Source: Pelotomaculum isophthalicicum JI (lineage in GTDB: Bacteria > Bacillota > Desulfotomaculia > Desulfotomaculales > Pelotomaculaceae). From it: a stretch of 64,000 nt of DNA. A program made the translations under genes and the position numbers. This document shows positions 47,349 through 54,100 of this stretch, piece after piece. The stretch is taken from NCBI RefSeq assembly GCF_029478095.1, contig NZ_JAKOAV010000010.1:1-64000 (forward strand). The letters are read 5' to 3'. Below the pieces are notes generated by a model, which worked only from the letters and a program-made list of their open reading frames with translations, did not search any database and had not been told where the DNA came from. How positions within the stretch are numbered: the first letter of the stretch is position 1; each line of letters starts with the position of its first letter.

Positions 47349-47380
47349 GTTTCAATCCACGCACCCGCACGGGGTGCGAC
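47349..47380 (-). CRISPR. Orphaned terminal CRISPR repeat, separated from the array by a transposon
   Basis: A perfect copy of the 32-bp repeat of the main array (GTTTCAATCC...GGGGTGCGAC on the plus strand). Bases 47381-47408 plus 51120-51124 form a 33-bp spacer once the element at 47409-51112 and one target duplicate are removed, so this is the last repeat of the original array. No further repeats are present at lower coordinates. Confidence 0.93.
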
Positions 47381-47401
47381 ATCGAGCGGCTAGCAATTGA
47401 G

Positions 47402-47408
47402 TTAAAGG
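47402..47408. repeat. Left target-site duplication TTAAAGG
   Basis: TTAAAGG directly before the terminal TGT of the element; the identical heptamer follows the terminal ACA at 51113-51119. Confidence 0.85.
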
Positions 47409-47551
47409 TGTGATTGCTCACGGAAACTGACAGTTAAGGGACCACCGCCAATGGCAGTGATCAATATTTATTAAGTAGCATAGGGAGTAACGGAGTTTCG
47501 CAGACCCCTCCCTATGCCCACAAGATGGTGGCTAGAAGCCCCCACTGCAAG

Positions 47552-48187
47552 ATGAGAATAACAATTTTTTGCCCAGATGTCCAGAGTTATCTTGAAAATC
47601 CGGAAAGTTTTCTTCCTGATAAACCGGTCTGCCTTAACAATCCTAATCATAAGCCCTATTGGAATGCGAGCTGGGAACGTGGTCTGCATTTGGATCATGT
47701 TCATTCCACCGAGATTCCTCTTTTCAACGCTTACTGCAAAGAATGCCACGAGACAATCAGCTATTGGCCGGAGTTCGTATTGCCCTACCAAAGAGAACCA
47801 CTGGAAACCCATGAGCAGGCGGTGATTGAGCACCTGCAAGGAATCAGCATTAGCGAAAGCGCGGCCCGGATCGGATACGATTCACGAACCGTATCCCGGT
47901 GGATAAAGCTGACCTTCACCCAAGCTCAAGCACTTGTCGGCCATGTCGTCCGGCGCATTCTCAGACTTATTGGGGCAGAGATACTACCGTTAGCCCCGGC
48001 GGTGGCCACGGAAGCCACAAGGCTCCTGCTTGCCTGGTTACATAGCTATGCCGGTTGGATTAGCTTTCCTCGCCTGCACCGGCTGATAGGCTTGTGCAAC
48101 CTGCTCGGCATGGGGGACTGGGACCTGTGGGGCGCCCCTTTAGGGAAAGCCAGAGCCCGGGTGAAAGAAGCAAGTTCACCCGGCTAA
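47552..48187 (+). CDS. DUF6431-type accessory protein of the transposon
   Basis: About 211 residues from ATG 47552 (a GTG at 47525 is possible). The N-terminal part has cysteine and histidine pairs suggesting a zinc-binding fold (FCPDV, VCLNNPNHKPY, YCKECHETI). The middle resembles a helix-turn-helix (GISISESAARIGYDSRTVSRWIK, shown here only by its core SESAARIGYDSRTVSRW). The C-terminal half is helical. The family name is from memory. By position and fold it could be a DNA-binding target or end-recognition factor for the element. It is the first gene after the left end, 120 bp before the transposase. Confidence 0.6.
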   Translation: MRITIFCPDVQSYLENPESFLPDKPVCLNNPNHKPYWNASWERGLHLDHVHSTEIPLFNAYCKECHETISYWPEFVLPYQREPLETHEQAVIEHLQGISISESAARIGYDSRTVSRWIKLTFTQAQALVGHVVRRILRLIGAEILPLAPAVATEATRLLLAWLHSYAGWISFPRLHRLIGLCNLLGMGDWDLWGAPLGKARARVKEASSPG

Positions 48188-48306
48188 ATCTCTTTACGAA
48201 CGAGGATTTCCCACAAACCATGGCTCTCGCCAAACTTTCTGACTTGAATCATGATGGTGATTAGAGGAAATAAGTCCTTAAAATCAGAGTCAGGAGGTAA
48301 AAATGG

Positions 48307-50491: not shown

Positions 50492-50556
50492 TCTGTAAAA
50501 CTTAGGCCCTAATTTGACCAATTAGGTCTTACGATAATTACTGGGAGGTATCCGGT

Positions 50557-50856
50557 GTGATTGAGCAATCAATACCTTTAAATGATGCTCGGCAAGACAG
50601 GCGGAAATTGGAAGATTTCTTTATTACTACCGGTTTCTATGATTTACTGCCTCTTGCCTTGAAAGTGGCCGTAAGTTTGGGTTATAACCAAACTGAGATG
50701 ATTGAAGCTATATGCAAAGCAAGTGATAAATGCAACCATTATCCGCCAACCAAAAACAGAACTGCTTGGTTTCGGAAGGTTTTTGAGGAGAAGTTGCGGG
50801 AGGCCAGAGGGGATATCTTGACCTATAAGGCCAGGATGAAGTACTTAAAAAAATAG
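50557..50856 (+). CDS. Small transposon protein, function unknown
   Basis: A 99-residue charged, helical protein starting at a GTG behind GGGAGGT, 65 bp after the ATPase gene and about 255 bp from the right end. Central region ALKVAVSLGYNQTEMIEAIC; basic C-terminus (ARMKYLKK). I do not recognise a family. Placed where Tn5053-like elements carry TniQ, but far too short for it and without a zinc motif. Confidence 0.55.
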   Translation: MIEQSIPLNDARQDRRKLEDFFITTGFYDLLPLALKVAVSLGYNQTEMIEAICKASDKCNHYPPTKNRTAWFRKVFEEKLREARGDILTYKARMKYLKK

Positions 50857-51112
50857 TCAAAAGCGATTATGATTGATTGATGACTGACAGACCGACAGAC
50901 ATAGTTTAATATGCTTTTATCAACTCGGTTTTTAAAATTGCTAATTTCTAGCTAAGGGACTAATGCCAATGGTGGTGGCTTTCGAAACGGACCATCGCCA
51001 TTGGCGCTGATTTTTAAACTGGTTAACTGTTGCCATTGACGGTAACCAAAATGTCATTGATTAATGACATTGGCGATAATTAACTTGCCGCCAAGGAACG
51101 TGAACCGCTACA

Positions 51113-51119
51113 TTAAAGG
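51113..51119. repeat. Right target-site duplication TTAAAGG
   Basis: Directly follows the terminal ACA of the transposon; identical to 47402-47408. Bases 51120-51124 (GATTT) complete the interrupted spacer. Confidence 0.85.
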
Positions 51120-51124
51120 GATTT

Positions 51125-54100
51125 GTTTCAATCCACGCACCCGCACGGGGTGCGACTGTATATATACTACCTGCTTTTAGGTTTCCGGCTGTTTCAATCC
51201 ACGCACCCGCACGGGGTGCGACACAAGGCGTGCCGGTTTGACGGCGGGTGCATGGTTTCAATCCACGCACCCGCACGGGGTGCGACCGTCAGCTTATGGA
51301 GCAACAGGGCATGACGCAGTTTCAATCCACGCACCCGCACGGGGTGCGACCCTATGGTACCGTAACAAGCGCCAGGCTGCTTGGTTTCAATCCACGCACC
51401 CGCACGGGGTGCGACGCAAGAGCGAGTTCGATAGCAACCGGACTTAGTGTTTCAATCCACGCACCCGCACGGGGTGCGACATTTTATATTCAGTATATTT
51501 GTTATATTTAACTGTTTCAATCCACGCACCCGCACGGGGTGCGACAACCATCAAAAGTATTAGTACCTTCTGCATCATGTTTCAATCCACGCACCCGCAC
51601 GGGGTGCGACTGAAAAATATAAAGATATTGAATTACCTTATGAGTTTCAATCCACGCACCCGCACGGGGTGCGACCCTCCCTGTCGGATAGTGCGACAGA
51701 TCTATGAGTTTCAATCCACGCACCCGCACGGGGTGCGACTTTGATGGATTTACACTAAGTTATGAATTATTGTTTCAATCCACGCACCCGCACGGGGTGC
51801 GACATAAAATCATAACCCGGTATAGCAACTACGTCAGTTTCAATCCACGCACCCGCACGGGGTGCGACTTCGTCCAGGCTGGACGTGATAAGGGCAGCTA
51901 GTTTCAATCCACGCACCCGCACGGGGTGCGACGGCATAGCCTGCCTGACGAGTCGTTGAAAACTACGACGTTTCAATCCACGCACCCGCACGGGGTGCGA
52001 CCCACCCGCAGCATCGACAGGGAAGCCCTACTCGTTTCAATCCACGCACCCGCACGGGGTGCGATGGCGAAAGAATCATAGTTGGTCGCCGTGCCGCTGT
52101 TTCAATCCACGCACCCGCACGGGGTGCGACCGACTACTGCAAAGCCAAAAAATACGAGGTTGTAGTTTCAATCCACGCACCCGCACGGGGTGCGACCGAT
52201 TAAATGGTTTCATAACCCTGTTGGTAGTGTTTCAATCCACGCACCCGCACGGGGTGCGACATTCTGGCAGAAAAAGCTCTACTCATGTCAGGTGTTTCAA
52301 TCCACGCACCCGCACGGGGTGCGACGAGTATATTTTGATTTCGGCACCCACGACGACGTTTCAATCCACGCACCCGCACGGGGTGCGACTCCATATGAAG
52401 AATTATTTATTGCAATATGGGCGTTTCAATCCACGCACCCGCACGGGGTGCGACTGATATTACTGGATTCCTTATAGGGTAGGGTATGTTTCAATCCACG
52501 CACCCGCACGGGGTGCGACGCAGCAGGGACCGGATGTACTCAGAAACTGACTTGTTTCAATCCACGCACCCGCACGGGGTGCGACGAAGCCGGCAAGGTA
52601 AAGACCTTGCCCAGAAAGTTTCAATCCACGCACCCGCACGGGGTGCGACGGGGTGCCGCATTATGTCGGCCACCCCAACACGTTTCAATCCACGCACCCG
52701 CACGGGGTGCGACAAGCCTTACAGCCACAAGAGACTCTCATTTTTTGTTTCAATCCACGCACCCGCACGGGGTGCGACATGAAAATAATGGTGAACGGCT
52801 ACGGCTACAGCGTTTCAATCCACGCACCCGCACGGGGTGCGACTCAAGCGCCGAGACACTAAAAGCGATTCGGTTGGTTTCAATCCACGCACCCGCACGG
52901 GGTGCGACAGCTGGGGTTTATATCCAGAACGGGAGAGAGAAGTTTCAATCCACGCACCCGCACGGGGTGCGACCTGGATTCGTTGCCATTCTCGATCATT
53001 GGCTTTGTTTCAATCCACGCACCCGCACGGGGTGCGACCGCATTAGCCGAGAAAATGCGGCAGCGGGTATGTTTCAATCCACGCACCCGCACGGGGTGCG
53101 ACAATTTGACAAGGATTTTACAGCCGAAACCGATCTGTTTCAATCCACGCACCCGCACGGGGTGCGACAATGTTGTAACATTGTTACAAGAACACAAACT
53201 GTTTCAATCCACGCACCCGCACGGGGTGCGACCCAAGTATAGGAGCTTGGCAATCTTACAGAGGCGTTTCAATCCACGCACCCGCACGGGGTGCGACACA
53301 TTTTATCGGATCTCAAAATTGACTATGATGTTTCAATCCACGCACCCGCACGGGGTGCGACGACTTCACCAACGACCTACACGACCAATACCTTGTTTCA
53401 ATCCACGCACCCGCACGGGGTGCGACATTGATTGGTTGATGGGTAACGGCCACATGTTGTTTCAATCCACGCACCCGCACGGGGTGCGACCTACACCAAG
53501 GAACAGGCAACCGAGCTTTATAAGTTTCAATCCACGCACCCGCACGGGGTGCGACGCAGTTTTACAATGGGGTGCTTTGATGCAGATGTTTCAATCCACG
53601 CACCCGCACGGGGTGCGACATAACGTATTGTATTGATATATTCTGATAGTTTTGTTTCAATCCACGCACCCGCACGGGGTGCGACCCGCTGAGCCTGTGA
53701 TTGGGTATATGTGGACCGAGTTTCAATCCACGCACCCGCACGGGGTGCGACGGTCGAGAAAATTTAAGGAGGTTTTATTATGCGGTTTCAATCCACGCAC
53801 CCGCACGGGGTGCGACTCCCAATCCGGGTGTTTTGGGTTCATATCCTTATGTTTCAATCCACGCACCCGCACGGGGTGCGACCACTCCTTCACACTTTAT
53901 TCCCGGACTATTTACGTTTCAATCCACGCACCCGCACGGGGTGCGACAGTTTTCAATCCTGCAAGGGCTGTTTTAGTTAGTTTCAATCCACGCACCCGCA
54001 CGGGGTGCGACATGGATTTGAGGCCGTATCAGCAAAGAGCAAAAGTTTCAATCCACGCACCCGCACGGGGTGCGACGTGGAGGCAAAAGCCTACATGCCA

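What the first reader, a model, noticed from the sequence alone, without database searches (positions are those of the whole stretch)
47349..51156. Transposon inserted precisely into the oldest CRISPR spacer; insertion site can be restored to the base
The element (47409-51112) has TGT...ACA ends and a 7-bp direct duplication TTAAAGG. Removing it and one duplicate joins 47381-47408 to 51120-51124, giving a 33-bp spacer flanked by two perfect repeats. The array's leader lies at the other end, so the hit spacer is the terminal, oldest one. The insertion does not block new acquisition, which may explain why it was tolerated. Because about 178 spacers remain on the leader side, the insertion date cannot be read from spacer order, but the unmutated ends suggest it is not ancient.
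Basis: seen in the sequence. Interest (0 to 1): 0.85.

Follow-up and report, generated by a model that had tools for sequence, protein, structure and literature searches.

The report
Transposon inside last CRISPR spacer
A complete 3.7-kb jumping gene of the Tn7 superfamily has landed cleanly in the last spacer of a bacterium's long immune-memory array; this is a well-preserved but known kind of event, with a weak hint that its relatives end up in such arrays more often than other jumping genes do.

Summary
Confirmed to the base. The array has 180 repeats (47349-62746); one of its 179 intervals is 3744 bp and holds a 3704-bp element (47409-51112, TGT...ACA) between two copies of TTAAAGG. Removing the element and one copy leaves a 33-nt spacer, the commonest length here. 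Leader and a complete type I-C cas operon lie at the other end, so the hit spacer is leader-distal. It is the oldest surviving spacer only: the last repeat abuts a truncated MntA-type gene.

The element is an intact, single-copy TnsB/TnsC-type transposon with four genes. Relatives share its ends and make 5-7-bp duplications.

Transposon insertion into a spacer is already in print (ISC1359, PMC4390879). Beyond the finding: 6 of 80 copies of this transposase family examined lie inside arrays, against 1 of 120 control IS loci (Fisher p 0.017, or 0.037 without the window). The controls are imperfect and the same arrays hold other mobile elements, so tolerance of harmless sites is the simpler reading; a targeting preference is not excluded.

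The parts
47209..47348 (-). remnant beyond the array: last 35-38 codons of an MntA-type antitoxin gene, then a short start of its HepT partner (the second part read by eye)
   Evidence: 35 residues 71% identical to ORFs in G038, G040 and G052; intact ORFs of 155 and 152 aa; the G038 pair matches Polbeta and HepT-like models over cut-off
47349..47380 (-). leader-distal CRISPR repeat, perfect copy
47381..47408 (-). first piece of the interrupted spacer, ending in TTAAAGG
47402..47408 (.). target-site duplication, copy 1 (TTAAAGG)
47409..51112 (+). transposon, 3704 bp, TGT...ACA
   Evidence: ends shared with relatives
47525..48187 (+). ORF1, 220 aa, DUF6431/HTH-type protein, putative DNA binding
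   Evidence: below cut-offs for the window copy; 4 of 5 relatives scanned pass the DUF6431 cut-off; model of mean pLDDT 74.9 with an HTH-like part
48307..49698 (+). ORF2, 463 aa, TnsB-type DDE transposase (rve + Mu C-terminal domain)
   Evidence: both Pfam models over cut-off; TnsB chains in the PDB at E 6e-10; D169, D234, E270 invariant in 10 relatives
49691..50491 (+). ORF3, 266 aa, TnsC-like AAA ATPase with Walker A and B
   Evidence: AAA_22 over cut-off; motifs
50557..50856 (+). ORF4, 99 aa, small protein; 21 of 30 loci holding a relative also hold a TnsC relative
   Evidence: no family over cut-off
50964..51097 (.). right-end region with five GCCAATGG-like sites (up to two mismatches), 24-35 bp apart; one such site at the left end (47446)
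   Evidence: that they bind the transposase is inferred
51113..51119 (.). target-site duplication, copy 2 (TTAAAGG)
51120..51124 (-). remaining 5 nt of the interrupted spacer
51125..62746 (-). the other 179 repeats and 178 intact spacers
62747..62912 (-). leader
   Evidence: alike by eye to the leader of the related I-C locus in G003
62913..64000 (-). cas2 and the start of cas1; cas4, cas7, cas8c, cas5c and cas3 follow beyond the window (L060)
   Evidence: each over a curated cut-off

Best explanation
An autonomous transposon of the TnsB/TnsC (Tn7) superfamily inserted once into the leader-distal spacer of a type I-C CRISPR array. Its DDE transposase joined the TGT/ACA ends to a target cut with a 7-bp stagger, and gap filling made the TTAAAGG duplication; the AAA ATPase probably helped to choose the target. 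The insertion stops production of the terminal crRNA, because transcription from the leader now runs from the last leader-side repeat into 12 nt of spacer and then into the element. Leader, cas genes and 178 other spacers are untouched, so selection against it was weak. Shown: anatomy, ends, duplication, position, gene content, complete cas operon. Inferred: chemistry, activity, loss of the crRNA, near-neutrality, recent date.
For: Perfect 7-bp duplication and a restored spacer of the commonest length; transposase and ATPase domains over cut-off; PDB TnsB match; same ends in relatives; duplications of 5-7 bp in relatives; leader and cas operon at the other end. Precedent for a transposon in a spacer in PMC4390879 (section 4.5 read).
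Against: No empty site in a relative. Duplication length varies, and 6 bp is commoner than 7 in the family (15 of 21 usable candidates 6 bp, 5 of them 5 bp, one 7 bp). The distal end of the array may have been rearranged.
Confidence: 0.93

Rival explanations
1. The family has a real preference for CRISPR arrays or their leader-distal ends, by DNA features recognised by TnsC, the DUF6431 protein or ORF4, rather than merely surviving there.
For: 6 of 80 copies examined lie inside arrays of six different genomes, against 1 of 120 control IS loci (Fisher p 0.017, without the window 0.037, without the window and short-flank copies 0.022). 7 of 10 array-associated copies have at most six repeats on the leader-distal side.
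Against: In the phylum sample only 1 of 33 copies examined (of 38 listed) is inside an array. Eight copies in G057 are not near arrays. Arrays holding these elements also hold an IS, an IS66 and an integrase-type element. No common target sequence or strict orientation. Controls have narrower flanks, and nine control genomes were chosen for array-associated copies.
Confidence: 0.18
2. The insertion was selected because it destroyed a harmful spacer, for instance one matching the host or a wanted plasmid, as shown for ISC1359 in Sulfolobus.
For: Precedent in PMC4390879 (section 4.5 read).
Against: The rebuilt spacer matches nothing in the phage collection, nor the window outside the array or the other loci then held. 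The whole own genome was not searched for it.
Confidence: 0.06
3. The array once went on beyond the element and lost its distal part by deletion, so the element first sat in the interior.
For: The terminal repeat abuts a truncated MntA-type gene within about 10 nt; in G071 and G070 related copies have mismatched flanks inside an array, as left by rearrangement.
Against: The last repeat is perfect and no degenerate repeats remain beyond it; the element's own flanks match, so any deletion did not start at the element.
Confidence: 0.25

Closest known systems
ISC1359 insertions into a CRISPR spacer of Sulfolobus solfataricus (PMC4390879: section 4.5 read whole; passages of 7.5)
   Same: A transposable element interrupts one spacer and should stop its crRNA.
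   Different: There under selection in the laboratory and in a spacer matching a maintained plasmid; here natural, another transposon class, in the terminal spacer.
IS insertions into cas genes (PMC10359306, passages only)
   Same: Mobile elements disrupt a CRISPR-Cas locus; the paper also mentions IS insertion into CRISPR loci and prophage integration into arrays as known.
   Different: Those inactivate immunity; this one removes one spacer.
Tn7-superfamily elements (TnsB/TnsC); TnsB of PDB 7svw and others
   Same: TnsB-type transposase with Mu C-terminal domain, AAA ATPase partner, TGT...ACA ends, several short repeated sites near the ends.
   Different: No TnsA, TnsD/TniQ or Cas gene was recognised among its four ORFs; duplication 7 bp here, 5-7 bp in relatives; carries a DUF6431 protein and ORF4.
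IS481 family transposases (NCBIfam NF033577)
   Same: Best NCBIfam match of ORF2 (133 bits).
   Different: Below the cut-off of 224 bits; this element has an ATPase and further genes.

Membership tests
Tn7 superfamily (TnsB/TnsC type) | TnsB-like DDE transposase (rve plus Mu C-terminal domain) | tested here: met
Tn7 superfamily (TnsB/TnsC type) | AAA ATPase partner encoded next to it | tested here: met
   AAA_22 over cut-off; Walker motifs
Tn7 superfamily (TnsB/TnsC type) | TGT...ACA ends with several repeated sites | tested here: met
   binding itself not tested
Tn7 proper | 5-bp target duplication and a TnsA gene (recalled) | tested here: not met
   7 bp; none of the four ORFs matched a TnsA model
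Tn7-like / Tn5053-like with TniQ or TnsD | TniQ/TnsD target selector | tested here: inconclusive
   ORF1 matches DUF6431, not TniQ; fold comparison gave only weak HTH matches
Tn552 / Tn5053 type | resolvase gene (recalled) | tested here: not met
   no resolvase model among the four ORFs
CRISPR-associated transposon (CAST) | Cas effector genes inside the element | tested here: not met
   no Cas model among the four ORFs; the cas operon lies outside and is a full type I-C set
IS481 family | NCBIfam equivalog score | tested here: not met
   133.4 bits against a cut-off of 224
Type I-C CRISPR-Cas (the host locus) | cas3, cas5c, cas8c, cas7, cas4, cas1, cas2 beside the array | tested here: met
   each over a curated cut-off

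The most novel reading that the evidence does not exclude
A widespread family of Tn7-superfamily transposons (DUF6431 protein, TnsB, TnsC and often ORF4) tends to insert into CRISPR arrays, mostly towards the leader-distal end, so that arrays serve it as a harbour: a transposon strategy of parking in a host defence locus without disabling it.
Probability: 0.18. Interest if true: 0.72.

Novelty: new member of a known kind. Interest (0 to 1): 0.36.

Why it matters
As a single case it is a clean record of a transposon sitting where a CRISPR array can best spare it. PMC4390879 describes the CRISPR loci of IS-rich Sulfolobales as relatively intractable to transposition, so repeated insertions of one bacterial transposon family into arrays would ask why arrays resist some elements and admit others, which a transposition assay could answer. 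ORF4, 52-76% identical between the window and most other loci that hold it over most of its length while the transposases of the main branches are about 30% identical, is an uncharacterised component worth a test.

Tried and rejected
Array targeting the element itself: rejected; the longest matches of the 178 spacers and the rebuilt spacer to the element were 13-14 nt. Source of the rebuilt spacer: no match in 50,697 phage records. Carriage by phages: no relative in viral contigs, a scan that reaches close relatives only, or in phages. Plasmids: 83 records hold relatives, each under 60% identity. Empty site in relatives: not found. A strict orientation rule or a common target sequence: not supported. 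TniQ identity of ORF1: no support; no PDB match at E 0.001 or better, HTH domains at Z up to 5.2 in the second look. L066 (in the window's own branch) was not counted as in-array: a repeat-like 30-mer stands 3 bp from its left end, but it occurs only once more in that genome, on another contig, without an array. L080, L085 and L135 lie near arrays and were not counted as inside. L082 (G005) has repeats of one array on both sides, but sits in a 7.6-kb composite insertion with intron-like ORFs and was not counted either. The copy in L145 is a broken one, its transposase in two frames.

Paper searches; two searches returned nothing. Nothing about an array preference of this family came up in the listings seen; they show at most 20 papers per search, from open-licence papers only. 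PMC5529391 (passages) had nothing on the point.

Rows left out: searches list about 107 distinct places; 80 were examined, the others mostly on short contigs; 13 of the 80 have short flanks. Controls are the 120 loci of the best matches of four searches, not all their matches, and have narrower flanks (about 1.5 kb from the matched domain) than the transposase copies. Three of the six in-array calls (window, G071, G070) have only one or two intact repeats next to the element on one side.
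Full report
Observation. The array at 47349-62746 has 180 repeats (178 perfect, two with one mismatch) and 179 intervals: 178 spacers of 32-38 nt and one interval of 3744 bp. That interval holds 47381-47408 (28 nt), an element of 3704 bp (47409-51112) and 51113-51124 (12 nt). TTAAAGG stands on both sides of the element. Taking out the element and one copy leaves 33 nt, the commonest spacer length (81 of 178).

Array polarity. On the + strand the repeat reads GTTTC...GCGAC, so the array is transcribed on the - strand (from knowledge of I-C repeats). 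At the high-coordinate end lie a leader (62747-62912), alike by eye to the leader of a related I-C locus in G003, and an operon whose cas2, cas1c, cas4, cas7, cas8c, cas5c and cas3 each pass a curated cut-off (found in L060, which runs beyond the window). The interrupted spacer is therefore the leader-distal one.

'Oldest' needs care. Just beyond the terminal repeat lies the end of an MntA-type antitoxin gene: 35 residues, 71% identical to ORFs in G038, G040 and G052. The G038 and G040 ORFs are 155 and 152 aa long, and the G038 gene and its neighbour match Polbeta and HepT-like models. In the window a short start of the HepT-like gene seems to follow and to run into a stop; this I read by eye. 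No degenerate repeats were found beyond the last repeat. The distal end could be a deletion scar, so the hit spacer is the oldest that survives.

The element. It has four ORFs on the + strand. ORF1 (220 aa) is DUF6431/HTH-like; the window copy scores below the cut-offs, but four of five relatives scanned pass the DUF6431 cut-off. Its predicted model is of middling quality (mean pLDDT 74.9) and resembles known folds only by a generic HTH. ORF2 is a TnsB-type DDE transposase. ORF3 is a 266-aa AAA ATPase whose frame overlaps ORF2 by 8 bp. ORF4 (99 aa) has no family over a cut-off; of 30 loci that hold a relative of it, 21 also hold a TnsC relative. The right end carries five GCCAATGG-like sites with up to two mismatches, 24-35 bp apart, the left end one. 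The element is single-copy, and no other transposase of its kind reaches E 1e-30 in its genome. Two relatives are contigs that begin and end exactly at the element's ends (L004, which is the record of L062, and L063), as expected when an assembler collapses a repeated element.

Target duplications. The 82%-identical copy in G101 has 6 bp. Four of four copies looked at in G057, of eight, have 6 bp, read by eye. G011 copies have 5 and 6 bp and one has none. G101's copy inside an array has 7 bp. Of 29 copies run through an automatic search, 21 gave a usable candidate: 15 of 6 bp, 5 of 5 bp and 1 of 7 bp, a few of them doubtful. Seven bp here is within the family's range. A likeness to Tn552 in this respect is recalled only.

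Mechanism. The transposase joins the ends to a 7-bp staggered target, probably at a site chosen with the ATPase; gap repair gives the duplication. These steps are inferred from the family. For immunity the cost is one crRNA: transcripts from the leader pass the repeat at 51125-51156, then 12 nt of the leader-proximal side of the spacer, then the element's right end, and the next repeat is 3.7 kb away. An insertion further up could cut off every spacer below it, so the terminal spacer is the cheapest place.

Do relatives do the same? I examined 80 copies of this transposase family, of about 107 places listed. Six have repeats of one array directly on both sides: the window, G101 (L045), G011 (L055/L081), G221 (L145), G071 (L050) and G070 (L087). 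L045, L081 and L145 have at least three repeats on each side; the other three have one or two intact repeats on one side. Ten of 80 have an array within 4 kb of the transposase. The G221 copy lies within a repeat and the G101 copy at a spacer-repeat border; the G071 and G070 copies lack matching duplications and look rearranged. Of 120 control loci (families PF01609, PF01548, PF00872), one lies in an array, the giant array of G011. Fisher's test gives p 0.017, 0.037 without the window, and 0.022 without the window and the short-flank copies. The test is weak: copies within a genome are not independent, nine control genomes were chosen for array-associated copies, and flank widths differ. In the phylum sample one of 33 copies examined, of 38 listed, is inside an array (L145) and one more lies within 4 kb (L135).

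Arrays accept other elements too. The 422-repeat array of G011 also holds an IS and a 4-kb insertion with two phage-integrase-type recombinases; the G221 array holds an IS66. This favours tolerance over targeting. Seven of 10 array-associated copies have at most six repeats on the leader-distal side, and seven of 10 point against the array's transcription (polarity judged from the repeat sequences). Selection could give the first; the second is what chance easily gives.

Literature. PMC4390879 (section 4.5 read whole; other passages) reports that CRISPR loci of IS-rich Sulfolobales are relatively intractable to transposition and that ISC1359 inserted into a spacer under selection. PMC10359306 (passages) reports IS insertions in cas genes and mentions IS insertion into CRISPR loci and prophage integration into arrays. 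PMC10293859 was searched for terms only. A transposon in a spacer is thus known; an array tendency of this family was not met in the searches named under Tried and rejected.

Verdict. Observation confirmed; a new member of a known kind; modest interest as a single case. The array tendency of the family is the part that could become more than that.

Noticed in passing
47209-47348, - strand: Remnant of an MntA/HepT-type toxin-antitoxin pair directly beyond the terminal CRISPR repeat.
   Followed up: partly
50557-50856: ORF4 is more alike between branches of the transposon family (mostly 52-66% identity) than the transposase (about 30%); relatives occur in 33 of 150 genomes searched, some without a TnsC gene nearby.
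   Followed up: partly
L080, L220, L081, L221 (G011:C1, about 1989000-2026600): An array of 422 repeats over 37 kb holding three mobile elements of different kinds: an IS, a TnsB/TnsC element and an insertion with two phage-integrase-type recombinases.
   Followed up: partly
L050 and L087: Related copies with half a CRISPR repeat on one side and part of a spacer on the other, without a matching duplication, as if two insertions in one array had recombined.
   Followed up: no
L066:20-52: A close relative in a Desulfosporosinus MAG has a repeat-like 30-mer 3 bp from its left end; the contig ends there, and the 30-mer occurs once more in that genome.
   Followed up: partly
46991-47122 (-) and 29197-29280 (+): FMN riboswitch near the array's distal end and a cyclic di-GMP-II riboswitch elsewhere in the window.
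   Followed up: no
1859-2370: Tandem repeat of period 270, 1.9 copies, 94% matches.
   Followed up: no
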